64,000 nt of DNA from Yinghuangia soli (lineage in GTDB: Bacteria; Actinomycetota; Actinomycetes; Streptomycetales; Streptomycetaceae). The stretch's first letter is position 1. Each line of letters starts with the position of its first letter. Position numbers and translations under genes: made by a program. The DNA is taken from contig NZ_JAKFHA010000001.1 in assembly GCF_021502675.1 (NCBI RefSeq), positions 788,698-852,697 on the forward strand, read 5' to 3'. The notes below the pieces were generated by a model, which was not told the DNA's origin, did not search any database, and worked only from the letters and a program-made list of their open reading frames with translations. Positions 6,818-22,610 of the stretch are shown here, piece by piece.

Positions 6818-7219
6818 TCAGTCCGTGGCGGGGAAGGGGTCCTCCAGCAGCGGGATACAGGGCGACAGCAGCGCATCCGGACACTCGGCCACGCTCCCCC
6901 GCACCATCCTGAACACCCGGAATTCGTTCTCGTGTCCGCGCCACTCGTCGTCGTGCACATGCAGCAGGCCGTATGACCCCGGCGCTCGGCGCCCGACCTC
7001 GCCGAAAAAGGCGATGACACCCGCATGCCGGTGGTTCGGCATCCCGCCGAAGTGCACAAACAGCTCGCCGTTCATCCAGCGCAGATCCAGAAGGTAGGGG
7101 CTGTCGATCTCCCGGATGCGGTCCCGAAGCTCCGCGGCGATGCCCTGGAGCCGCCCGTCATCCTCGTCCTCGGCGCCCGCGCTCTCCAGCACATGAACCC
7201 ACCCGTGGTACTCGAACAT
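6818..7219 (-). CDS. Imm7-family immunity protein (orphan)
   Basis: A 133-aa soluble protein matching the Imm7 family of polymorphic-toxin immunity proteins. Visible hallmarks are the start MFEYHGWV, LDLRWMNGELFVHFGG, GSYGLLHVHDDEW, NEFRVFRMVRG and the tail LSPCIPLLEDP. Imm7 members normally protect against a toxin domain delivered by a large secreted protein. No toxin gene is visible in the window, so this looks like an orphan immunity gene guarding against kin toxins. The start region is duplicated in tandem (7201-7277), creating a second, immediately terminated copy of the N-terminus upstream. Confidence 0.85.
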   Translation of the reverse strand: MFEYHGWVHVLESAGAEDEDDGRLQGIAAELRDRIREIDSPYLLDLRWMNGELFVHFGGMPNHRHAGVIAFFGEVGRRAPGSYGLLHVHDDEWRGHENEFRVFRMVRGSVAECPDALLSPCIPLLEDPFPATD

Positions 7220-8428: not shown

Positions 8429-8585
8429 CGCAGCTCCGATCCGATGGTCGGATGATCCGAACAGGGCGGCCGAGCCGACGACTTGCCCGGTTCGGGGAAA
8501 TGCCGACGCCTCCCCCGCGCGGATGCCACCCTGATCGGCAAGGCGGCACGCGGTGGGTGCCGTCAGGCGCGGGAAAGGGGGCACC

Positions 8586-10166
8586 GTGGCGCGGCGACTT
8601 GTCGTCTTCGTACCGGCGATCACCGGCCGTACGGAAGCGTGGACCGATCTGCAGAAGCGGCTGGCCGAGCTGGACGGGTACAGCGCAGCGGACTGCGACT
8701 ACAGGGTCGTGCCGCACGGCGGCCGCAGCTACAAGCCCGGTTCCGTCAAGGATCTGGCCAAGGCCGTCGGGGCGCACATCCACGAGCTCTGGACGACCGG
8801 CGACTACGGCGACGTGGTGCTGGTCGGCCACAGCATGGGCGGACTCGTCCTGCGCCAGGCGTACTTGGACGCCCTCGGCGCGAACGGGCCCACCGGGCGT
8901 CGGCCGTGGGCGGCGAAGGTCGACCGCATCGTGCTCTTCGCGAGCCTCAACCGGGGCGTCGACGTGTCGCGGCACCGGGCGTGGTGGCTACCCGCAGCGG
9001 CGTGGTCCGCGCGGGTCCTGCCGGTGCTCCGGCGCTGGCTGGTGCACGACCTTCTGCGCGGCTCGGACTTCATCACCAACCTGCGCATCTCGTGGATCCG
9101 CGAGATCAATGCCCTGGACCACCCGCCGCTGATCCGGCAGTTCCTCGGCACCGAGGACAACCTCGTCACCGACGACGACAGCAGCGACGTACGCGCCTTC
9201 CCCACCGGCGAAGAAGTGCCCCTCGCCGGTGCCACCCACAACAACCTGCTGCAGGTGGACCTCGCACCGGACCCCGAGACCCGGTTCCGGCTCATCGCCG
9301 AGGCGTTCACCACCCCGCGCCCCACCGCCGTCATCCCGGAGATCGGCAAGCCGGAGAAGCGCGTCGTGATACTGCTGCACGGCATCCGCGCGGGCAACAC
9401 CACCTGGGTGAAGGACCTGAAGGAGCTCCTCAAGGCGCAGGATCCGGACACCGAGGTGGTGGCGGCGACCTACGGCCGCTTCTCGGCACGCAAATTCGTC
9501 CTTCCGATCACCCGCCGCAAGTACATCGGCTGGCTCGAGGACATGTACGCCGAACAACTCGCCAGGAACCCGAAGGCGACGTTCCACTTCGTCGGCCACA
9601 GCAACGGCACCTACCTGCTCGGGCACAGCCTCAAGCGGATCCCGGGCATGCGCTTCCAGCGCGTGCTGCTGACCGGGAGCGTCCTGCCGCCGTCCTACGG
9701 CTGGACAGAGCGCATCGACCAGGGGCAGGTGGGCTGGATCCGCAACGACCGGGCGTCGCGCGATGTCCCTGTCGCGGTCCTGTGCGCCGGCCTCCGCGGC
9801 TTCAGAATGCGCGATATCGGCACCGGCGGCGTCGACGGCTTCAACGACGACCCGGCCACCAAGACCGAGGTCTACTACCACGACGGGGGCCACAGCGCGG
9901 CCCTCGAACCCCAGCACCTGGACGGCATCGCCAAGTACGTGCTGACCGGCGACACGAAGCCGCCGTCCGGCCTGGTCCGCACCCCCGCGTGGGCCGTCTC
10001 CCTGCTGTCCCGGATGGCCGCGCCGCTCTTCCTCGTCCTGGGTGCCGCCGCGGTGTCCGGCCTCGTCTGCCTCGCCCTCTTCGGCCCGTGGGGCCTGCCG
10101 CTGAACCTCCTTGCCGCGCTCGTCGCGGTGCCGATCGTGCTGTTCTTCATCCTCGACGTGGTGTGA
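8586..10166 (+). CDS. Tandem alpha/beta-hydrolase protein with C-terminal membrane segments
   Basis: A 526-aa protein with two alpha/beta-hydrolase-like units. Unit 1 begins LVVFVPAITGRTEAW and has a GHSMGG nucleophile elbow near residue 83. Unit 2 begins RVVILLHGIRAGNTTW (about residue 258) and has a GHSNGT elbow near residue 338. The last 60 residues hold two hydrophobic helices (LFLVLGAAAVSGLVCLALF and LLAALVAVPIVLFFIL), placing the enzyme on the membrane. The GTG at 8586 has GGGGG a few bases upstream. The two lipase-like units could act on lipids or esters, but the substrate is unknown. Confidence 0.7.
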   Translation: MARRLVVFVPAITGRTEAWTDLQKRLAELDGYSAADCDYRVVPHGGRSYKPGSVKDLAKAVGAHIHELWTTGDYGDVVLVGHSMGGLVLRQAYLDALGANGPTGRRPWAAKVDRIVLFASLNRGVDVSRHRAWWLPAAAWSARVLPVLRRWLVHDLLRGSDFITNLRISWIREINALDHPPLIRQFLGTEDNLVTDDDSSDVRAFPTGEEVPLAGATHNNLLQVDLAPDPETRFRLIAEAFTTPRPTAVIPEIGKPEKRVVILLHGIRAGNTTWVKDLKELLKAQDPDTEVVAATYGRFSARKFVLPITRRKYIGWLEDMYAEQLARNPKATFHFVGHSNGTYLLGHSLKRIPGMRFQRVLLTGSVLPPSYGWTERIDQGQVGWIRNDRASRDVPVAVLCAGLRGFRMRDIGTGGVDGFNDDPATKTEVYYHDGGHSAALEPQHLDGIAKYVLTGDTKPPSGLVRTPAWAVSLLSRMAAPLFLVLGAAAVSGLVCLALFGPWGLPLNLLAALVAVPIVLFFILDVV

Positions 10167-10282
10167 CGGGCCTCCACCGAAAGGCGGAGTACCGCCCGGT
10201 TCGCTACCACGACATCCGCGTTGCACGGCAAGGCCCCGGCCGACTACGGCATTTCGTACGACCACGACAAGAAACCCGCCAC

Positions 10283-10696: not shown

Positions 10697-11395
10697 CTAC
10701 GGCAGCGGCCACTGCACCGGGGGCTGGTCGAAGCCGCCGCGGTGCTGGATCTTGACGAGCTTGGCGTTCAGGGGGACTTCGTACGTCACCAGACCGGTAC
10801 GCGACTCGCCCGGGGCCAGTTGGGCGGTCGCGGGGAACGGCGTGCCGAAGGCCTGCCCGCCGATGGAGTAGTCGTACGCCTTGCCCTGCGCATCGTGGAC
10901 CTTGACGTCCGCAGACGGCGAGGCATCCAGCGTCTCGGCCCCCAAGTTGGTGATGCGCCATTCGAGCGCGACCAGGCGGCCGGTCGGTTCGGCCTTGGTC
11001 GACTCGCTCTGCGGCGGCGCGGGGTCGACCACGCGGAGCAGCGTCACCTCGACCGGCTGCTTCGCACCGTCCAGCATGCGCACGGGCTCCCCGATCCGCG
11101 CCGGCCCCACGAACGGCGTGACGGTCACCGACGGAGCCGTCGTCGTCGCGGACGGAGACACGGATGCGGACGAAGTGGCAGACGCGCCCGCCCCCGTCGT
11201 CGAAGCACCCGCACCAGGAGCCGGAGACGTCCCGGCCGGAGCCGACGCCGCCGGGGTCGTCGCCCCCGCACCCGCCTTCTTGTCGTCCCCGCCACATCCG
11301 GCCAGCAGCAGGACCCCCGCCGCCACCGCCGCAACACCACCCGCCCGTCGGTGCCCTGCCCCGGTACCTGCCGCTCTGCCCCGCACCCGCGTCAT
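10697..11395 (-). CDS. DUF4352 lipoprotein (copy 1)
   Basis: A 232-aa secreted lipoprotein. The signal peptide ends in the lipobox LLLAGC near residue 36, followed by about 60 residues rich in Ala, Thr, Ser and Pro as a cell-wall-spanning linker. The C-terminal DUF4352 immunoglobulin-like domain runs from about residue 90, with RLVALEWRITNLGAETLDASP and SRTGLVTYEVP. The family's role is unknown, possibly extracellular binding. A paralogue lies at 13312 on the same strand, and both have similar leader sequences. ATG 11395 is preferred over the upstream codon at 11410. Confidence 0.85.
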   Translation of the reverse strand: MTRVRGRAAGTGAGHRRAGGVAAVAAGVLLLAGCGGDDKKAGAGATTPAASAPAGTSPAPGAGASTTGAGASATSSASVSPSATTTAPSVTVTPFVGPARIGEPVRMLDGAKQPVEVTLLRVVDPAPPQSESTKAEPTGRLVALEWRITNLGAETLDASPSADVKVHDAQGKAYDYSIGGQAFGTPFPATAQLAPGESRTGLVTYEVPLNAKLVKIQHRGGFDQPPVQWPLP

Positions 11396-11483
11396 ACTTC
11401 CCCACCCCACTCAGTCGGACCGGCCATGATGCCAGCCTGGCACCCGCGGGGCGCGGACGGCGGAGATCACGGCGCCGGTTCGG

Positions 11484-13166
11484 TCACAGCCCCCATTCCT
11501 CGCACAGGCGCGTGACCAGGTACTCCTGCCGCTCCTTGAGGTGGGCGGGGGTCCACTGCTCGGCGGCCAGCACCTGGCCCGTCAGCGCGAAGGTGGTCGT
11601 CCCGTGCTTGCCGCCGAAGTACTTCGCCTTCTTGACGGTGAAGTCGTAGTTCTGCGCCTCGGAGTTCTTGCGCCGGGTGAGCAGGACGAGGTTGCCGAGC
11701 CGATGCGTCCACAGTTCGCGCTCGTCGTCGGTGAAGTCCGTCAGCCACTGCGAGCCCGGAGTCGGGTTCTGCGGCAGTACGTGCTCGACGGTCACCAGCG
11801 GGTGCACGTACACGGCTCCGGAGGCGTCGGCCAGGACCTCGTCCAGGCGCAGCAGTACGTACCTGCGGGTCTTCTTCTCCCTATAGATGTCGCCGTCGAG
11901 CTGGTCGCGGGTGGCCTGGCGCTCTTCGTCGTCGAGCCGGAAGGCCGGCGCATCCAGACCATGGCCCGCAGCGAGTTCCTTGAGCAGGGCCTCGTAGCGC
12001 TGGAGGCGCGGTGTCGTGTAGATGCGGCGGACGAACATGCTCGCGGCGAGGCGTTCCAGCGCGCGGAAGAAGTGGTCGAGCCAGACCGGGTCGTTCGGGT
12101 GCTCCTTGAGCGCCCACAGAGCCGGCGGGATCCAGTCGCTGTTGTCGAGCTGGTCCAGGCGGCGCAGCCAGGCGTTGACCTTCTCGGCCCCGGCGGGCGC
12201 GCTGTAGTCGAAGTCGCGGATGACGCCGTACGCCGCGGCGTACGGGTCGAGCACCTCGGTGACGAACTCCTTCGCCCGCCCCGGAAGGTAATTCTTCTTC
12301 AGAACCAACTCGTCGAATTCCTTAAGGAGTTCGACCTTGGCGCGTTCCTTGACGAAGACCATCCTCAGGTGCATGAACAGGTCTGCGAAGTCCGCGCGCC
12401 CGAGTGCTTCCTCGGCGTCCTCCCAGTGCGCCGCGCACATCTCCGCGGCCTTGGGGTCGTCCTCGAGATCGCCGATGACGAGGGACTTGAAGATGTCCGC
12501 GGGAGACAGGTCCAGCCCCCGCGAGTTCATGACGCTGAAGATCCGGTGGGCACTGACCAGGTCCGGCGTCCGCACGATGACCAGGAATGTCCGCTGGGAC
12601 AGCATCCGGGTCAGCGCCAGCCGCTGCTCCTCCGTCCAGGTGGCGAGCCGTCGGCGCAGCGCCGATGCGTTGGCGATGACCGCGCGCTGCGCGTCCGTCG
12701 GCACGTAGGACGGGTCCACGGCGTCAAGTCCAGACGTGGCGCCGTCGTCCTGGACGTGCTTGCGGAAGAAGTCGGAGTCCTTCTCGCGAAGCGTCAACCG
12801 GGGCTTGGGCTCGAGCGCGAGCATCTTGCTGCCGGGTTCGGCGATCATCCGGGCCAACTCGCCGCGCAGTTCGCCGTCGTCGGTCAGGTCGCGGAGCACG
12901 GCGAGCAGGATCGTCAGCGTGGTGAGGCGCTGCTGGCCGTCGATGACCTCCGCGGCTGCTTTGTCCGCCTCCTTGACCAGCACGATGGAGCCCAGGAAGT
13001 AGGGCTCATCCCCGTCCCGCTGCAGCGCGTCATCCAGATCGGCGAGCAGTTGCTCGGCCTGTTCCACTTCCCATGCGTACGGCCGCTGGTAGCGCGGGAT
13101 CCGGAAGTCGTAGTCGGCGCAGAACACCTTGTGCAGCGCCACTTCGTGCGCCTCGAGCTTTCGCAT
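11484..13166 (-). CDS. DUF262/DUF1524 protein, GmrSD-type restriction nuclease candidate
   Basis: A 560-aa single-chain protein. The N-terminal DUF262 (ParB/Srx-like NTPase) domain shows RIPRYQRPYAWE near residue 23 and EVIDGQQRLTTLTIL near residue 74. The C-terminal DUF1524 HNH-type nuclease region shows VTVEHVLPQNP and HRLGNLVLLTRRKNSEAQN. This architecture is that of GmrSD type IV restriction enzymes, which cleave phage DNA with modified cytosines; relatives act in SspE and BrxU. It stands alone, with no methylase, between two DUF4352 lipoproteins. ATG 13166 is the natural start. Defence is inferred from the family. Confidence 0.85.
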   Translation of the reverse strand: MRKLEAHEVALHKVFCADYDFRIPRYQRPYAWEVEQAEQLLADLDDALQRDGDEPYFLGSIVLVKEADKAAAEVIDGQQRLTTLTILLAVLRDLTDDGELRGELARMIAEPGSKMLALEPKPRLTLREKDSDFFRKHVQDDGATSGLDAVDPSYVPTDAQRAVIANASALRRRLATWTEEQRLALTRMLSQRTFLVIVRTPDLVSAHRIFSVMNSRGLDLSPADIFKSLVIGDLEDDPKAAEMCAAHWEDAEEALGRADFADLFMHLRMVFVKERAKVELLKEFDELVLKKNYLPGRAKEFVTEVLDPYAAAYGVIRDFDYSAPAGAEKVNAWLRRLDQLDNSDWIPPALWALKEHPNDPVWLDHFFRALERLAASMFVRRIYTTPRLQRYEALLKELAAGHGLDAPAFRLDDEERQATRDQLDGDIYREKKTRRYVLLRLDEVLADASGAVYVHPLVTVEHVLPQNPTPGSQWLTDFTDDERELWTHRLGNLVLLTRRKNSEAQNYDFTVKKAKYFGGKHGTTTFALTGQVLAAEQWTPAHLKERQEYLVTRLCEEWGL

Positions 13167-13311
13167 GTCGCACAGTCTCGCCTACCAGGCCGCCCCCGAA
13201 AGGGACTTCGGATCGACCGATGGACGCAGCAGCAGTTCACCGGCCGGCGGCCGACCAGACTCCTCGGGCAGGGCGAGAGGCGCCCGGCCCGAGGAGTGTC
13301 GCCGCGCAGAG

Positions 13312-13992
13312 TCAGGACAGGCGCCACTCGGCGTTGGGCTTGCCGTAGCCGCCGGAGAATTCGACCTTGACGAGCTTGGTGTTCTGGGGGACTTCGTAGG
13401 TCACGAAGCCCAGGCGCGAGTCGCCCGGGGGGATTTGGACCATCGCCGGGTATTCGACGCCTTGGGCGCGGCCGCCGATGGAGAAGTCGAAGACCTGGCC
13501 CTGGTCGTCGATCAGCTTGCTGAACGACGCGGGCGACGCGGAGAGGGGCTTGCTGCTGGTGTTGGTGACGCGCCACTGGATGGCGACGAGGCGTCCGCCG
13601 TCGTCGGCCTTGCTGTACTCGTTCGCCGGCGTTGCCGGGTCGACGATCTGAACCAGCGTCACCTGGAAGTCCTGGTCGCTGTGGGAGACGTTGAGCGTGT
13701 CTCCGACGTTCGCGACCGAGGGTGCTGCGGACGACGATGCCGAGGCGGATGCGGAGGGTGCCCCGCTCGGCGTGCCGGGCGTGCCGGGCGTGCCGGGTGC
13801 GCCGGGTGCCGGGGTCTCGCAGCGCTTCCTGAACTCGCCCATCGGGATGTTCGGGTTCGCGCAGTCCAGGGTGGAGACGTCCTGTGCCTGCGGTGTCGTA
13901 TTCGTCTTCTTGTCGTCGCTGCTGCACGCCCCCAGCAGCGCGACCCCCAGTGCCACTGCCGCGACCCCGCCGATTCCGCGCCGAATCCCCAT
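13312..13992 (-). CDS. DUF4352 lipoprotein (copy 2)
   Basis: A 226-aa paralogue of the protein at 10697. The lipobox LLGAC lies near residue 23. A short extra segment with two cysteines (LDCANPNIPMGEFRKRC) follows, then a PGTPGTPGTP/Ser-Ala linker, and a DUF4352 domain with GRLVAIQWRVTNTSSKPLSASP and LGFVTYEVPQNTKLVKVEF. The second of two adjacent ATG codons (13992) is best spaced from GGGGAG. The shared leader and domain point to duplication around the DUF262 gene. Confidence 0.85.
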   Translation of the reverse strand: MGIRRGIGGVAAVALGVALLGACSSDDKKTNTTPQAQDVSTLDCANPNIPMGEFRKRCETPAPGAPGTPGTPGTPSGAPSASASASSSAAPSVANVGDTLNVSHSDQDFQVTLVQIVDPATPANEYSKADDGGRLVAIQWRVTNTSSKPLSASPASFSKLIDDQGQVFDFSIGGRAQGVEYPAMVQIPPGDSRLGFVTYEVPQNTKLVKVEFSGGYGKPNAEWRLS

Positions 13993-14113
13993 CATGCTCC
14001 CCACCCCGCCGAGATTGAGTCGATCATGATGCCAAACGGCGGGTGGGGACTCCAGGGCGGTGCCGGGACAGCAACCAAGTCGCAACCGGACGTTTTATGG
14101 GCGGCCAGGGAGG

Positions 14114-15565
14114 TCAGAGACCGGCGTCAGCAAGGATCTTGTGCATGGCTGACAGCGGCAGGCGGGGAGACGCGGCGGCGGCCTGCGCGACGTACGGCTC
14201 GGCGTCGGCGAGCAGGCGTTCGAGGGTGCTGGTCGAGAGGGACGCCTGGCCGATGGCGGCGGACCGCAGCGATGACGACTCGTCGACGGCGAGTTGCTCT
14301 GCGATGCCGGCGGCGTGCGTTCCGTTCTTTGCTGCCAAGTAGTACAGCTCCGCATCCTCGGGGCTGGTGCGGGTGATCCAGTCGTCGTACGCCTCCGCCG
14401 GAAATTGCGGCATCGACGTCAGAGGGGGATGGAGCTTCATGGATTCGCCGTATGCCTCGACGACTTTGCGCAGCACGTGGCCGGGCAGGCGTTCGGCATG
14501 GCAGACGGCGATGACTTGGGCATCGAACTGGTCCGCTTCGGCCAACATCTCGATGACCGTGTCGAGGGAGAGGTCTCCCTGGGAGGCCGCGACGCAACGG
14601 ATGAAGTAGAGCGGCGACCGGGCGTGGCGCTCGCGGGTCTCCACGGGGGCGGTGCGGAGCCACTCCATCATGCTGGAGTGGGCCCACATCATGTCGACGC
14701 CGGCCCTGACCGGGTACCGGCGCTCGCCGTCATGGCGCGGGCCTTCTGCGTCGAGTTCCTCCCAGATCTCGACGCGCTGCTCATCCGACAGTTCCTCTTG
14801 GGTGAGGAGCGCCAGGCGCACCCGTGGACTGGGGTCGTTCCGCAGCAGCCGGTACGCATCCTGGAGTTGCGAAGACGCGGCGGCGACGCGGCGCACCATC
14901 TCGTCTTCGTCGTGCGCGAGTTCCCGGGCCTGTTCCGGAGTGAGCGTGACTCGGCCGGCGACGGCCACCCGGGTCGCCGGATTAGCCAGCAGCGCGCCGA
15001 CGAGGTCGGCTGGGATGTCCCAGCGCCACGCATTGCCAAGCGCTGCGAGGCGCACCCGCAGGTCAGGGTCGGTCAAGAACGCCCGGCGTTGCTCCTCGGG
15101 CGGGTCGGCCCAGGTCCCGGCCATGGCGGCGCGGACCCCCGGGTCCGGGTCGACCGCGCGGGACATCTTGATGGCGAGCGGGAAGCCTCTCCCCAAATAG
15201 TCCAGCTTCCGGACCTCGGGGTCGGCGGCGATGTGGGCGACGAGTTCGTCCGGCGTCTCGCAGCCCGGGAGCTCGTCCGGACCGCTGCTGCGCAGCCCCG
15301 CGACGCGGACCCAAAGGTCGGGGTGGGAGGCGAGCGTCCAGCGGACGCCGGTCGGGGTGCGCGGGCTCGCGGCGAGTTCCTGCAGCGCCCCAGGTTCGTC
15401 CGCTTCGAGGATGACGGCGCGCATGACGTCGTCGATCCCGGCGTAGGACGCGGCGATCGACTGCCGCCCGACCGGGTGGCCGAGGAGGCGGAAGGCCAGG
15501 TCGTATGGGAGCGCCGGGTTGCTGCCCAGGCCGAAGAGGTGGGGGAACTTGGTGTTCGCCGTCAT
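14114..15565 (-). CDS. Leucine-rich-repeat-variant (LRV)-like helical repeat protein
   Basis: A 483-aa soluble protein made of recurring helical units of roughly 24-30 residues with the pattern (A/L)ASxPxxWVRVAxLxxS, for example TLASHPDLWVRVAGLRSS, LTDPDLRVRLAALGNAW, LANPATRVAVAGR, LRNDPSPRVRLALL and ADAEPYVAQAAAASPRLP. Such LRV/HEAT-like solenoids are protein-interaction scaffolds common in Streptomyces. The ATG at 15565 is preferred to the GTG three codons earlier. The next gene upstream is 36 bases away on the same strand, so an operon is possible. Confidence 0.7.
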   Translation of the reverse strand: MTANTKFPHLFGLGSNPALPYDLAFRLLGHPVGRQSIAASYAGIDDVMRAVILEADEPGALQELAASPRTPTGVRWTLASHPDLWVRVAGLRSSGPDELPGCETPDELVAHIAADPEVRKLDYLGRGFPLAIKMSRAVDPDPGVRAAMAGTWADPPEEQRRAFLTDPDLRVRLAALGNAWRWDIPADLVGALLANPATRVAVAGRVTLTPEQARELAHDEDEMVRRVAAASSQLQDAYRLLRNDPSPRVRLALLTQEELSDEQRVEIWEELDAEGPRHDGERRYPVRAGVDMMWAHSSMMEWLRTAPVETRERHARSPLYFIRCVAASQGDLSLDTVIEMLAEADQFDAQVIAVCHAERLPGHVLRKVVEAYGESMKLHPPLTSMPQFPAEAYDDWITRTSPEDAELYYLAAKNGTHAAGIAEQLAVDESSSLRSAAIGQASLSTSTLERLLADAEPYVAQAAAASPRLPLSAMHKILADAGL

Positions 15566-15601
15566 GGAACGCACCTTGGCACAAGGCGTGGTGAGTGTGT
15601 G

Positions 15602-16246
15602 TCAGCGATTCGTCGGCGACCATGCAGGGTTGCGGCCCAGCGCCCGGAGGATCTCGGCGAAGGGTGCGGTGCCGGCGGACGTCCCCCGAGATCCCCGCGG
15701 CGCCGGCCGCGCCGGAACAGGTGGGAGCGGCGGGGCGAATGCCGCGCCCGGGGCGAGGCGTGACGGGCCGTCGGGGACGGCGAGGGCGATGGGCAGTGCG
15801 GCTTCGGCGATGTCGGGTTCGGGGGCGTGCGGGAGGCCGAGGGTGCGGGCGACGTCCCAGGCGTGCACGACGTAGTCGATGAAGTGGAACCCGATGGCCT
15901 GCCAAGCCGGGAAGGGCATCGCGGAGGTGATCTCCGGAAGCATGAAGTCCTGCTCGCGGTCGGTGACTTCGCCGAAGGCGGCGAAGACGTCGGCGGCGGC
16001 TTCGCGGTACTGGGCGATGCTCGGGGGTTCCGTTGCCCAGTGCCGCGGATCGGCGCCGTCCCCGCGGGCCGCGGCGGCGAACCCGCGGTGCTGGGCGGTC
16101 ATGTGAGCCAGCAGGTCGGCGAGCGACCAGCCGGTGCAGGGCGTCGGTTTGTCGAGGTCGTCGGCGGTGACCTGCTCCACCACGGCGACGCCGGCCTTCA
16201 CCGTACGCGCGTCGTACCACTTGACGGCATCCAGCTTGATAGGCAT
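15602..16246 (-). CDS. TIGR03086/DinB-like metal-binding protein (mycothiol-dependent enzyme family)
   Basis: A 214-aa four-helix DinB/maleylpyruvate-isomerase-type protein. The hallmark PTPCTGWSLADLLAHM (metal-binding His) is near residue 35, and FHFIDYVVHAWDVA (second metal-binding His region) is near residue 120. The family belongs to actinobacteria that use mycothiol and probably catalyses thiol-dependent transfer or detoxification. It is divergently transcribed from a MarR gene, with a shared 53-base promoter region, so it is probably that regulator's target. Confidence 0.8.
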   Translation of the reverse strand: MPIKLDAVKWYDARTVKAGVAVVEQVTADDLDKPTPCTGWSLADLLAHMTAQHRGFAAAARGDGADPRHWATEPPSIAQYREAAADVFAAFGEVTDREQDFMLPEITSAMPFPAWQAIGFHFIDYVVHAWDVARTLGLPHAPEPDIAEAALPIALAVPDGPSRLAPGAAFAPPLPPVPARPAPRGSRGTSAGTAPFAEILRALGRNPAWSPTNR

Positions 16247-16255
16247 TTGCTTACC

Positions 16256-16271
16256 GTAGGCAGGTGCTTAC
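16256..16271. promoter_or_regulatory. Candidate MarR operator between divergent genes
   Basis: GTAGGCA-GG-TGCTTAC is an inverted repeat with 6 of 7 arm positions matching. A further GCTTAC copy at 16249-16254 gives a direct repeat. It sits in the divergent promoter gap just before the TIGR03086 start, the usual place for MarR auto-regulation. Confidence 0.5.
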
Positions 16272-16299
16272 TGATTGGTCAACGGCTATGTTCGGGCGC

Positions 16300-16869
16300 A
16301 TGTCCGCGAACGCCCCCGACCCGCCGCGCCGCGACCTGGCCGCGATGATCGTCCCGCTCGGCCGCCACCTGATGGCCGCCGAGATGCCGGTGCTGCGCGC
16401 GCACAGGACGTCGATGTGGGCGTATGTGGTGCTCCTCGGCCTGGGTGACGCGGGCGACGAACCGGTGCGCACGCAGGCGGCGTTGGCCCGCGAGATCGGC
16501 GCGGACAAGACGCGCATCATCGGCGTCCTGGACGACCTGGACGCCCGCGGCCTGATCCGGCGCGAGCCCGACCCCGCCGACCGGCGCGCCCGGCTGCTGT
16601 CGCTGACCGCGGAGGGGCGGCGGGTCCGCGACAGCATCCGGGCGGGCATCCGGGAACGCGAGGATCGCCTGCTCGCCCGCCTCTCCCCCGCCGACCGCCG
16701 GGGCTTCCTCAACGCGCTCGACGTCCTGGCGTCCCTCCCGCCCGGAGCCTTCGCCGACGAAGACGAAGGGGAAGCGGAGGGGGGAGCGGAAGGGGAAAGG
16801 GTCGGGGCAGGGGAAGGCGACGACGAGGACGGGAGCGCGGACGGCGGCGAAGGCGCGCCGGGCGTCTAG
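16300..16869 (+). CDS. MarR-family transcriptional regulator with acidic C-terminal tail
   Basis: A 189-aa winged-helix protein. The recognition region is AALAREIGADKTRIIGVLDDLDARGLIRREPDPADRRARLLSLT, typical of MarR. The last 35 residues are an unusual low-complexity Glu/Asp/Gly tail (GEAEGGAEGERVGAGEG). Starts at 16264, 16288 or 16300 are possible; I prefer 16300 because the upstream codons overlap the inverted repeat. It probably represses itself and the divergent TIGR03086 gene. Confidence 0.8.
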   Translation: MSANAPDPPRRDLAAMIVPLGRHLMAAEMPVLRAHRTSMWAYVVLLGLGDAGDEPVRTQAALAREIGADKTRIIGVLDDLDARGLIRREPDPADRRARLLSLTAEGRRVRDSIRAGIREREDRLLARLSPADRRGFLNALDVLASLPPGAFADEDEGEAEGGAEGERVGAGEGDDEDGSADGGEGAPGV

Positions 16870-16891: not shown

Positions 16892-16943
16892 GAGGCACCA
16901 GCCGGAGGCACCAGCCGGAGGCGTCAGCCGGAGCCGTCAGCCC
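16892..16943. repeat. Four 13-bp tandem repeats at the 3' end of the SnoaL-like gene
   Basis: Units of GAGGCACCAGCCG, progressively diverged, run through the stop codon (16937-16939) of the minus-strand gene and fill most of the gap to the MarR stop. Confidence 0.75.
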
Positions 16944-17395
16944 AGCGGCAGCATCAGATGGTGCGAAAGGTCCCCGGCCTGCTCGGTGACCATGTGGCGG
17001 CTCGCGAACGACCAGGCGCCGCCGGCGTCGCGCGTGAAGGTGTCCCGGTAGCGGCCGGTGATGATGGGCTGCAGCGGGAGGTCCGGGGTGGCCTGCAGGA
17101 CGGTGAAGTAGGAGCGCGCCGAGGCGGTGCCCGCGTCCTCGTCGATGTCGAGGATGAGGTTGGTGGTGACGTGCTTGGTACGCGGCGTGCCGTCCTCGTA
17201 GCGGCGGGTCCAGGTCGCGTACAGGGCGTGGATCGCCTCGCGGCCGACGATCTTGTCGGGCGAGGCGTCGGTGGTGACGACGCAGTCGGCGAGCAGGTCG
17301 GCGACCGCGTCGAAGTCGCCGGCGTCGATCCCCTCGGCGTACAGGGCGACGAGGTTGGGGACAGCGATGTGGCCGGGCTGGCGTTCCGGGGCCAT
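16937..17395 (-). CDS. SnoaL-like polyketide cyclase/NTF2 family protein
   Basis: A 152-aa NTF2-fold protein: NLVALYAEGIDAGDFDAVADLLADCVVTTD, then REAIHALYATWTRRY, then FASRHMVTEQAGDLSHH. Members are small-molecule isomerases, dehydratases or binding proteins and often accompany SDRs and flavin oxidoreductases in catabolic clusters. The ATG at 17395 is chosen for its GAGG site; upstream in-frame codons run into Arg/Pro-rich promoter sequence. It is divergent from the SDR at 17611. Confidence 0.8.
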   Translation of the reverse strand: MAPERQPGHIAVPNLVALYAEGIDAGDFDAVADLLADCVVTTDASPDKIVGREAIHALYATWTRRYEDGTPRTKHVTTNLILDIDEDAGTASARSYFTVLQATPDLPLQPIITGRYRDTFTRDAGGAWSFASRHMVTEQAGDLSHHLMLPLG

Positions 17396-17610
17396 GGGCA
17401 CCTCACAAAGGACGGAGCGGCGAGCAGGTCGGGGGCGGTGAAGCGGCGTCACAGTACGTCGCGGGCCCGCCGGAATCCAGCGCCTCCCCGCCGTCCCGCG
17501 ACCTAAATCGCGTCCGATCACTCTTTAGTGACGCGCCGTCAGATGGCATGGTGAGCTGAGCGCCGTGCGCCCCCGCACGCGCGGGTCCGACGGCAAGAAG
17601 AGGTACGAAC

Positions 17611-18402
17611 GTGGTTCTCGATGCGTCCAGCAGCCTGCTCACCGGCAAAGTCGCCGTCGTCACCGGCGCCGCACGCGGGATCGGCGCGGCGACCGCGGTG
17701 GCCCTGGCGCGCTTCGGCGCCGATGTCGCGATCTGCGACAAGGAGGACCAGAGCACCACGCTCAAGGCGCTCGAGGAGACCGGCCGCAAGGTGTACGCGG
17801 GCACGCTCGACGTCCGCGACACGGAGGCGGTGGAGGCGTTCGTGCAGGGCGCGCACGCCGAGCTCGGCGCCCTGGACGTGCTGGTCAACAACGCGGGCGG
17901 CGGCTTCTGGGCGCCCTTCCTGGAGGTCAGCCCGAAGGGGCAGCGGGCGCTGATCGACGAGAACTTCACGACCGTCGCCAACGTGGTCCGCAGCGGCGTC
18001 CCGCTCATGAACGACGGCGGCTCGATCGTGAACGTGACCAGCGTCGAGGCGCACCGCGCGGCGCCCGGCTTCGCCGTGTACGCGGCGATGAAGGCCGCCG
18101 TCGAGCAGCTCACCAAGTCGCTCGCGCTGGAGCTGGCGCACCGCCGGATCCGGGTCAACTGCGTCGCCCCGGACGCCATCCCCACGCCGGGCGACGAGGG
18201 CCTCGCCGAGTCGGTCGGCGGGCTCGACTACGCAGCCAAGGTGCCGTTCGGGCTGGGTACGCCGGACGACTGCGCCGCGCCGATCGTGTTCCTGGCCGGG
18301 CCGATGTCCGGCTTCATGACCGGGACGACGCTGCATGTCGACGGCGGCACCCACGCCGCCTCGGGATGGACGCGCCGCCCGGACGGAGTCTGGACGCCGT
18401 AG
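17611..18402 (+). CDS. Short-chain dehydrogenase/reductase
   Basis: A 263-aa classical SDR using NAD(P)H. It has TGAARGIG near residue 18, NNAGGG near residue 92 and the catalytic S/Y/K set in VTSVEAHRAAPGFAVYAAMKAA (residues about 145-165). The C-terminus holds the usual MTGTTLHVDGGTHAASGW. The GTG has AAGAGG about 9 bases upstream. It oxidises or reduces a ketone/alcohol in an unidentified pathway shared with the neighbouring flavin oxidoreductase. Confidence 0.9.
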   Translation: MVLDASSSLLTGKVAVVTGAARGIGAATAVALARFGADVAICDKEDQSTTLKALEETGRKVYAGTLDVRDTEAVEAFVQGAHAELGALDVLVNNAGGGFWAPFLEVSPKGQRALIDENFTTVANVVRSGVPLMNDGGSIVNVTSVEAHRAAPGFAVYAAMKAAVEQLTKSLALELAHRRIRVNCVAPDAIPTPGDEGLAESVGGLDYAAKVPFGLGTPDDCAAPIVFLAGPMSGFMTGTTLHVDGGTHAASGWTRRPDGVWTP

Positions 18403-18422
18403 CCGCAGCCACCCGGCCTCTG

Positions 18423-18449
18423 CCGCGGTCCGCACGGTGCGGACCGCGG
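18423..18449. terminator. 13-bp perfect hairpin between SDR and luciferase-like gene
   Basis: CCGCGGTCCGCAC and its complement are separated by one base. It lies 20 bases after the SDR stop and 64 before the next start, so it may terminate or attenuate transcription between them. Confidence 0.65.
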
Positions 18450-18513
18450 TATCTCCCGCCCCGACCGAACCACCACGCCAGGCCCCACCCACCCGCCCGT
18501 GCAAGGGAGCCCC

Positions 18514-19635
18514 ATGGAATTCGGCATTTTTCTGCAGGGGTACAACCCCAAGTTCCGGCGCGACGGCAATCCGAACGCCGAGCACGAAGCACTCATGAAC
18601 GACATGGCGTACGCGATCGCCGCCGACAAGGCCGGCTTCAAGTACGTGTGGCTGAGCGAGCACCACTTCCTCGACGAGTACTCGCACCTGTCCGCCAACG
18701 ACGTGATGCTCGGCTACCTCGCGCACGCGACCGAGCGGATCCACATCGGCAGCGGCATCTTCAACCCGCTGCCGCAGGTCAACCACCCCGCCAAGGTCGC
18801 CGAGCGCGTCGCGATGCTCGACCACCTCTCCCAAGGGCGGTTCGAGTTCGGCACCGGCCGCGGCGCGGGCAGCCACGAGATCCTCGGCTTCCTGCCCGGC
18901 ATCGAGGACATGAACCAGACCAAGGACATCTGGGAAGACGTCATCCGCGAGTTCCCCAAGATGTTCCTGCAGGACGAGTACGAGGGCTACGAAGGCCGCT
19001 TCTGGTCCCTCCCGCCCCGCAAGATCCTGCCCAAGCCGTACGGCAAGGGCCACCCGGCCATGTGGTACGCCGCGGGCTCGCCCAGTTCGTACGCGATGGC
19101 CGCGAAGCTGGGCCTGGGCGTCCTCGGTTTCTCGATCGGCGACGTCGAGCAGGCCGAGCGCGCGGTCGCCGACTACAAGCGGCAGATCGTGGACGCGGAG
19201 CCGATCGGCGCGTTCGTCAACGACAACGTCATGGTGACCTCGACCGGGTTCGTCGCGGAGACGAAGGAGGCCGCGTACCAGGCCGCGGTCGACTCGCGGC
19301 TGATGTACCTGACCAGCAACGTCTTCCGGTACCACGACACGTTCCCGCACCCGGAGGGCATTCCGTTCTGGCCGGAGACGATCCCCGACCTGACGTACGA
19401 GGCGGTGGAATTCGCGGCCGACGCGGGCGCCATGATCGTCGGCGACCCGGACACCGCGATCAAGGCCATCAAGGCGTACGAGGCGGCCGGCGTTGACCAG
19501 CTGACACTCGGCCTGGGCGCCGACACCCCGGAGAACACGCTGCGCACGATCCGGCTGTTCGGCGAGCACATCATCCCCAAGATCGACACCGACCCGGAGC
19601 ACCGCACCACGAAGCTGCGCAACGCGGGGGCGTGA
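18514..19635 (+). CDS. LLM-class (luciferase-like) flavin-dependent oxidoreductase
   Basis: A 373-aa TIM-barrel monooxygenase or dehydrogenase of the bacterial luciferase family, using FMNH2 or F420. It has MEFGIFLQGY at the start, VWLSEHHFLDEYSHL, RIHIGSGIFNPLPQVNHP, and GRFEFGTGRGAGSHE, as in alkanal monooxygenase relatives. The ATG at 18514 has AAGGGAG a few bases upstream. With the SDR and the EthD-like protein it suggests breakdown of a hydrophobic ring or chain compound. Confidence 0.9.
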   Translation: MEFGIFLQGYNPKFRRDGNPNAEHEALMNDMAYAIAADKAGFKYVWLSEHHFLDEYSHLSANDVMLGYLAHATERIHIGSGIFNPLPQVNHPAKVAERVAMLDHLSQGRFEFGTGRGAGSHEILGFLPGIEDMNQTKDIWEDVIREFPKMFLQDEYEGYEGRFWSLPPRKILPKPYGKGHPAMWYAAGSPSSYAMAAKLGLGVLGFSIGDVEQAERAVADYKRQIVDAEPIGAFVNDNVMVTSTGFVAETKEAAYQAAVDSRLMYLTSNVFRYHDTFPHPEGIPFWPETIPDLTYEAVEFAADAGAMIVGDPDTAIKAIKAYEAAGVDQLTLGLGADTPENTLRTIRLFGEHIIPKIDTDPEHRTTKLRNAGA

Positions 19636-21363: not shown

Positions 21364-22596
21364 TCACCCCTTGTGCTGCGCACGGGCGAGCAGGTCCGAG
21401 ACTGCCGCCCTCCGTACCTGCTGCGGTGCCGGGGTCAGCCCTGCGTCGTCCAGGCGCGCTTGGACCTCGCCGACGCCCTCCCCCGCGAGTCTGGCGACCA
21501 CGCGCACGCCGACCCTGCCCTCCGTGTACGCCTGCACAGCCCGCTCCAGGATTCGCCGGGGCGGCTTGGGGCGCAGGGCGGCGTCCCGTTCCGCCAGATA
21601 CTGCGGCCCCCAGCCGAACCTCTGAGCAAGCTGGGCACCGGTCTGCCCCCGGAGGGCCTGCACCCGCGCAGTGGTCAGGAGGCCCATGGCCCGCAATTGG
21701 AAGAGCACGACGGGGAGGCTCACACGAAAATGCCGCGCCAGCAGTGCACACGTACGCAAGTCCGGTTCCGGTACCGCTGCGGCTCCGCTCCCACCGCCTT
21801 CGAGCGGGCGGAGCCATGCGGCAATGCCGTCCGTCGGTGCCAGCAGATGCCGGGCAAAGGCGTCGCAACGACGCTCCTTGGGCGTGCAGTCACCGTCCGT
21901 GCGGTGAGCCTCCGCACAGTCCCCGAACAGCACGTGCCCCAGCTCGTGGCAGCTGGTGAACCGCTGGCGTTCCGGGGAGGAACTCGTGGCCAACGCCACT
22001 ACCAGGACCCCGCGTTCGGGGTCTGCCACCGAGAACCCGTCCACGCCTTCCGGCAGGTCGAGAACAGCAGTGTCCGCACCGGTCAGGCGCTCCAGCAGCT
22101 CTGCGGCATCAGTGATCGGCGCACCGGCCAGGTCGAGCCTGTCACGAACCGCCTTGGCCAGCCGCGCACCCTGGTCTTCCGGGGGTAGCGCGCTGTCCGG
22201 GAGATCCACTGGCGCTGTCGTCAAACCGTCGCGCCTGCCCGCCTCGTCCGTACCCACTCGCGACGCACCGGCTCTGTCCATGCGGTCGTCGAGAACCAGC
22301 AGGTCCACCACCGCGCCGAGGGCAGCCTCCCGCGTGGCTTCGTCCACATCGGCCATGCGCGCGGCGACGACGACCCGGCTGCGCACTGAGCTGCCTTGGG
22401 TGAGCTCGCGCAGCGACACTTCGAGGACCTCGGCGATCCGGTCCAGCTCCGCCAGCGTGACACGGGAACGCGTACCGGCTTCGATGCGGGCAAGAGTCGG
22501 CTGCGACAGCCCGGCGAGCGGGGCCAGCTCGCGCTGCGTGTAGCGGGAAGCCTCTCGGGCGCGCCTGACCCGTTCTCCGACCTTGCCGAGATCCAT
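21364..22596 (-). CDS. XRE-family HTH regulator fused to ImmA/IrrE metallopeptidase
   Basis: A 410-aa protein. The N-terminal XRE helix-turn-helix (residues about 5-65) reads TQRELAPLAGLSQPTLARIEAG. A central zinc-peptidase domain has SCHELGHVLFGD (HExxH) near residue 195 and further ImmA/IrrE (COG2856) features. The C-terminus is helical. ImmA relatives cleave phage or element repressors, and fused forms serve as antitoxins that can be proteolytically regulated. ATG 22596 is preferred over the GTG at 22605 because GGAGG lies 8 bases before it. It is the first gene of the operon with the PIN gene. Confidence 0.9.
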   Translation of the reverse strand: MDLGKVGERVRRAREASRYTQRELAPLAGLSQPTLARIEAGTRSRVTLAELDRIAEVLEVSLRELTQGSSVRSRVVVAARMADVDEATREAALGAVVDLLVLDDRMDRAGASRVGTDEAGRRDGLTTAPVDLPDSALPPEDQGARLAKAVRDRLDLAGAPITDAAELLERLTGADTAVLDLPEGVDGFSVADPERGVLVVALATSSSPERQRFTSCHELGHVLFGDCAEAHRTDGDCTPKERRCDAFARHLLAPTDGIAAWLRPLEGGGSGAAAVPEPDLRTCALLARHFRVSLPVVLFQLRAMGLLTTARVQALRGQTGAQLAQRFGWGPQYLAERDAALRPKPPRRILERAVQAYTEGRVGVRVVARLAGEGVGEVQARLDDAGLTPAPQQVRRAAVSDLLARAQHKG

Positions 22597-22610
22597 GCGA
22601 GCCACCTCCG

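What the first reader, a model, noticed from the sequence alone, without database searches (positions are those of the whole stretch)
10697..13992. GmrSD-type DUF262/DUF1524 gene inserted between two DUF4352 lipoprotein paralogues
The two lipoproteins and their upstream blocks (TGGCATCATG, then GACT, in both) look like duplicates with the nuclease gene between them. This could mark insertion of a defence gene at a duplicated locus, or a defence gene carried with its surface partner.
Basis: partly seen in the sequence, partly recalled or inferred. Interest (0 to 1): 0.55.

Follow-up and report, generated by a model that had tools for sequence, protein, structure and literature searches.

The report
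DNA-cutting defence gene between duplicated lipoproteins
A common type of bacterial gene that probably cuts invading virus DNA sits between two related surface-protein genes; the neighbours look like an old local duplication with their own control signals, so the arrangement is most likely a chance neighbourhood, not a new system.

Summary
Two DUF4352 lipoprotein genes (A 10697-11395, B 13312-13995) flank a DUF262/DUF1524 gene (11484-13166), all on the minus strand, and share a 10-base leader motif. The "empty site" exists: of two genus-mates searched, neither has the nuclease. In one (G001) a single lipoprotein of this family, with the same leader, sits beside the same SnoaL/SDR/luciferase-like genes. 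A tree pairs A with B as lineage-specific duplicates (support 99/96). So a lineage-specific duplication with a nuclease gene between the copies is supported. The "surface partner" idea is not: 0 of 45 named loci with the close nuclease family, and 0 of 16 other family genomes, have such a lipoprotein nearby; each lipoprotein has its own leader; and a strong hairpin lies between B and the nuclease. The leader occurs exactly twice in this genome and twice in G001, always before these lipoproteins: an inherited promoter/leader, not an insertion scar. The nuclease keeps every known GmrSD-family motif (45 of 45 aligned sequences), and its model is closest to DndI, but the genome has no DndC match and no second GmrSD_N gene. 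Most likely a stand-alone, type IV-like restriction nuclease; target unknown. Ordinary.

The parts
10697..11395 (-). Lipoprotein A, 232 aa, DUF4352 domain at residues 115-217; lipobox-like LLAGC by eye
11425..11434 (-). Leader motif TGGCATCATG of A, 29 bases before the ATG
11484..13166 (-). DUF262 (GmrSD_N, residues 13-230) / DUF1524 (GmrSD_C, residues 419-551) protein, 560 aa; QR 27-28, DGQQR 76-80, FxxxN 210-214, E461-H462, N492, N501
13252..13304 (-). Strong hairpin after the stop codon of B (arms 13252-13275 / 13281-13304), probable terminator of B; it has no T run
   Evidence: I6; -49.8 kcal/mol, z -4.69; 0 of 200 shuffles as stable
13312..13995 (-). Lipoprotein B, 227 aa, DUF4352 domain at residues 104-216; lipobox-like LLGAC by eye
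14025..14034 (-). Leader motif TGGCATCATG of B, 29 bases before the ATG ending at 13995
14114..16869 (.). Three genes between B and the shared flank that are absent from the G001 place: HEAT-repeat protein (-), MDMPI_N protein (-), MarR regulator (+)
16937..19635 (.). Flank shared with G001: SnoaL-like (76% identity), SDR (84%), luciferase-like (94%), same order and orientation

Best explanation
The middle gene is a stand-alone member of the GmrSD-type (DUF262-DUF1524) nuclease family. Inferred mechanism, from characterised relatives: the DUF262 domain binds and hydrolyses a nucleotide through DGQQR and senses the state of DNA, and the His-Me finger of DUF1524 cuts or nicks foreign DNA. It works without the lipoproteins. 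The lipoproteins are two separately controlled, exported DUF4352 proteins made by a duplication in this lineage at a place where a genus-mate has one copy and no nuclease. The nuclease gene came by a gain at this variable place, before or after the duplication. Shown: domains, intact motifs, paralogy, empty state in a relative, no recurrent association. Inferred: nuclease activity, anti-phage role, separate transcription, direction and mode of gain.
For: Both Pfam domains over cut-off. QR, DGQQR, FxxxN, E/H, N and N conserved in 45 of 45 aligned sequences. In the AlphaFold model (pLDDT 84.8) H462 ends a strand, N492 lies just before the next strand and N501 in the helix after it, the layout that PMC11411939 describes for TgvB. 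Foldseek best hits DndI (E 1.3e-12, TM 0.68/0.64) and then BrxU (E 5.8e-5, TM 0.34). Sporadic spread: 17 of 394 family genomes in 7 of 17 genera; 131 plasmid records hold a match over at least 80% of the query. Genus-mates G001 and G002 lack it. G001 has one lipoprotein beside the shared flank. A+B pair on the tree. No DUF4352 at 45 named loci or 16 others. Leader motif twice in this genome and twice in G001, always before these lipoproteins. Hairpin after B.
Against: Only two genus-mates could be compared, and G002 has no close lipoprotein at all, so loss in G001 is not excluded. The gaps of 145 and 88 bases would still allow co-transcription: the region between the nuclease and A shows no special hairpin (z 0.15), and the promoter scan found no sigma-70-type site. 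The close nuclease family sits at one fixed place in eight Pseudonocardiaceae-type loci and near SMC-like ATPases in nine Streptomyces loci, so it is not always a mobile, solo gene. No activity was measured.
Confidence: 0.8

Rival explanations
1. The three genes form one unit: a nuclease with two exported partners that sense or block phage at the surface.
For: Same strand, gaps of 145 and 88 bases.
Against: 0 of 45 and 0 of 16 nuclease loci have the lipoprotein; 0 of 13 lipoprotein loci have the nuclease; separate leaders; hairpin between B and the nuclease; lipoproteins occur in genomes without the nuclease, e.g. G001.
Confidence: 0.03
2. The ancestor had lipoprotein, nuclease and lipoprotein together; G001 lost the nuclease and moved or lost one copy.
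For: G001 has a second, partly broken DUF4352 gene elsewhere (C7); the nuclease family is widespread.
Against: The tree pairs A with B, and the two G001 genes with each other (99/96 and 95/89); B+G001-C37 and A+G001-C7 are rejected (p 0.005 and 0.003). Gene conversion between A and B could fake this.
Confidence: 0.12
3. The nuclease is a phosphorothioate-dependent enzyme like DndI or SspE.
For: Closest solved fold is DndI; SspE also matches by sequence.
Against: No DndC-type match (TIGR03183) in this genome, 0 of 1 (5 of 14 control genomes gave weak matches, none over the cut-off, so there was no full positive control); no such genes among the scanned neighbours.
Confidence: 0.05

Closest known systems
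GmrSD / Eco94GmrSD type IV restriction enzymes (PMC4619093 passages; PMC4437046 search listing only)
   Same: DUF262 then DUF1524 in one chain, DGQQR, His-Me finger residues
   Different: DNA target of this protein unknown; EH in place of the DH described for GmrD; sequence not compared directly with Eco94GmrSD
HEC-06 (single-gene GmrSD-like defence candidate in PADLOC)
   Same: Whole-length PADLOC match, E 9.8e-65; single gene
   Different: PADLOC's 'Orf5' model scores far better (E 1.4e-146); I do not know which system that label stands for
DndI (PDB 9JFL, PMC11662687 passages)
   Same: Closest solved structure, TM 0.68/0.64, same two domains
   Different: 17% identity; no DndC-type gene found in this genome
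TgvB of TgvAB (PMC11411939 passages)
   Same: Domain order and catalytic layout
   Different: TgvAB needs a second DUF262 protein; this genome has one GmrSD_N match only
PFLU4242 of Pseudomonas fluorescens (PMC8544851 passages)
   Same: Chromosomal DUF262/DUF1524 gene with no known partner
   Different: Sequence not compared here; known through plasmid cost, not phage defence

Membership tests
GmrSD-type DUF262/DUF1524 nucleases | N-terminal DUF262 and C-terminal DUF1524 in one chain | tested here: met
   Pfam over both cut-offs
GmrSD-type DUF262/DUF1524 nucleases | QR, DGQQR and FxxxN motifs in DUF262 | tested here: met
   Residues 27-28, 76-80, 210-214; 45 of 45 aligned sequences
GmrSD-type DUF262/DUF1524 nucleases | His-Me finger H...N...N | tested here: met
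   H462, N492, N501 in 45 of 45; strand-loop-strand-helix layout in the model
GmrSD-type DUF262/DUF1524 nucleases | Cleavage of DNA with modified cytosine | not testable with these tools
   Needs an enzyme assay
HEC-06 | Best profile match to HEC-06 | tested here: inconclusive
   E 9.8e-65, but 'Orf5' is better at 1.4e-146
DndI / SspE phosphorothioate systems | Phosphorothioation genes in the genome | tested here: not met
   TIGR03183: 0 of 1; only DndC was sought, and the genome is a draft at 96% completeness
TgvAB | Second DUF262 protein | tested here: not met
   One GmrSD_N match in the genome
DUF4352 lipoproteins | DUF4352 domain over the Pfam cut-off | tested here: met
   A 37.3 and B 48.9 bits against 25.9
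DUF4352 lipoproteins | Signal peptide with lipobox | not tested
   Seen by eye only (LLAGC, LLGAC); no signal-peptide program

The most novel reading that the evidence does not exclude
The duplicated lipoproteins and the nuclease form a lineage-specific two-layer defence, with exported DUF4352 proteins acting at the surface and the nuclease inside.
Probability: 0.03. Interest if true: 0.5.

Novelty: new member of a known kind. Interest (0 to 1): 0.17.

Why it matters
It shows how a candidate defence gene can look linked to surface genes only because it sits at a variable place. The one useful by-product is a clean, rare leader motif that marks this lipoprotein family in two related genomes.

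Tried and rejected
Insertion scar: no shared word of 8 or more bases between the 164 bases upstream and the 104 bases downstream of the nuclease. Base composition of the nuclease (66-69% G+C in 500-base steps, against 67-75% around it) gives no clear foreign mark. A promoter/terminator scan gave nothing above shuffles. Phages hold only distant matches, 6 records, none at 60% identity or more. The abhydrolase on the other side (8553-10166) has no good match in G001 or G002 (one weak match in G002, E 5e-4), so the two genomes could be compared on one flank only. The luciferase-like gene's best G002 match is 43%, so that place could not be recognised in G002. NCBIfam gave no named family for the nuclease or lipoproteins. 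Papers with GmrSD, Streptomyces and lipoprotein together: 0. Papers with DUF4352: 8 in the listing, none opened.

Full report
What is there. On the minus strand lie lipoprotein B (13312-13995), a DUF262/DUF1524 protein (11484-13166) and lipoprotein A (10697-11395), in order of transcription. Pfam confirms DUF4352 for A and B and both GmrSD domains for the middle protein. The genome holds no other DUF4352 and no other GmrSD_N match.

The upstream blocks. In both lipoproteins 29 bases lie between TGGCATCATG and the start codon. The pattern TGGCATCATGRYCG occurs twice in 9.7 Mb, only here. The shorter TGGCATCATGRYC occurs twice in this genome and twice in genus-mate G001, at its two DUF4352 genes, 0 times in G002, once in G005 and 0 times in G037 (reversed control 0, 1, 0, 2, 1 for G000, G001, G002, G005, G037). 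So it is an inherited leader or core promoter of this gene family. It resembles an extended -10 element (TGN then CATCAT), but that is a reading by eye and recall, not a test. More distant DUF4352 genes have other upstream sequences.

Duplication and empty site. Of the two genus-mates held, neither has the nuclease (18 of 100 genomes have any match at E <= 0.001, most of them distant; close matches of 62-67% in four genomes besides the window's). G001 carries one DUF4352 lipoprotein (49% to B) next to the SnoaL-like, SDR and luciferase-like genes that lie at 16937-19635 in the window, with 76%, 84% and 94% identity and the same order. In the window three more genes (HEAT, MDMPI_N, MarR) lie between B and that flank. 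They are not at the G001 place, and the HEAT protein's best G001 match is only 35% and elsewhere. On the far side the genomes do not match. This is a variable place, not a clean single insertion. G002 has no match to lipoprotein B at E <= 0.001; with lipoprotein A it gives only weak matches (best E 3.3e-7).

Tree. Fifteen DUF4352 sequences, 136 columns: A and B form one group (99/96), and the two G001 genes another (95/89). Forcing B with G001-C37 or A with G001-C7 is rejected (p 0.005, 0.003). Branch A is long, one row (L086) has odd composition and is partly broken, and gene conversion between A and B would give the same picture. The simplest reading is a duplication in this lineage. By blastn, DNA likeness between A and B was found only inside the coding regions, at 70-74%, so the duplication is not recent.

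Is the nuclease tied to the lipoproteins? No. A profile of the 15 lipoproteins finds A and B in the window but nothing at E <= 1 in 45 named nuclease loci with about 655 kb of flank; 8 of the 45 loci are shorter than 13 kb because contigs end. It finds nothing in the 16 other Streptomycetaceae genomes with a close homologue, within 1.5 kb where the contig allows. These two sets overlap in at least four genomes. The other way round, 0 of 13 lipoprotein loci of 20 kb from relatives hold the nuclease. A hairpin of -49.8 kcal/mol (z -4.69) follows the stop of B; it has no T run, so 'terminator' is likely, not shown. Between the nuclease and A there is no special structure, but A has its leader.

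What the nuclease is. All motifs reported for the family are present and invariant in 45 of 45 aligned sequences: QR, DGQQR, FxxxN, E461-H462, N492, N501 (one of the 45 named loci, L141, was left out of this alignment and the window's protein added). Motif names were read in passages of PMC4619093, PMC11411939 and PMC10952713. A model with mean pLDDT 84.8 is closest to DndI (TM 0.68/0.64) and then BrxU; by sequence DndI's chain and SspE match. PADLOC gives 'Orf5' (1.4e-146) and HEC-06 (9.8e-65). HEC-06 is said to have antiviral activity and to act alone in passages of PMC12988326 and PMC11411939; I did not read the original paper. There is no DndC match and no second GmrSD_N protein, so DndI-, SspE- and TgvAB-type working is unlikely. 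A stand-alone type IV-like restriction nuclease is the best reading; the DNA feature it senses is unknown.

Spread. 17 of 394 genomes of the family, in 7 of 17 genera, have a close homologue. 665 plasmid records hold some match and 131 cover 80% or more of the query; only 2 of the 665 have 60% identity or more. This fits a gene that moves between lineages. No defence profile hit the genes next to the locus that were scanned: A, B, the HEAT protein, the abhydrolase and the SnoaL-like gene; MarR had one weak match. So there is no sign of a defence island.

Verdict. Real, correctly described, ordinary: a new member of a known nuclease family at a variable place between lineage-specific duplicates.

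Noticed in passing
L105:9755-12319, L111:9714-12314, L112:9714-12317 and six more loci: In 9 of 45 loci of the close nuclease family an SMC/AAA-type ATPase gene is a neighbour, mostly 43-230 bases downstream on the same strand (Pfam SMC_N, AAA_23, AAA_21 on one of them; PADLOC LmuB E 1.4e-20). Another locus (L094) has an OLD-like nuclease upstream. Possibly a two-gene system in Streptomyces.
   Followed up: partly
L118, L131, L133, L135, L136, L140, L146, L147: In eight loci (Lentzea, Umezawaea, a strain labelled Nocardia) the nuclease sits at one fixed place among genes that look by eye like ligA and gatCAB, as a vertically kept gene would.
   Followed up: partly
window 6818-7219 (-): Imm7 immunity protein (E 3.3e-43); no partner was looked for.
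   Followed up: no
window 21364-22605 (-): Regulator-like protein that matches PADLOC RmrA, capP and capH models (E 1.1e-18 and weaker).
   Followed up: no
L086 about 9600-10200 (G001 C7): Second DUF4352 gene of G001 with the same leader motif but an interrupted reading frame.
   Followed up: partly
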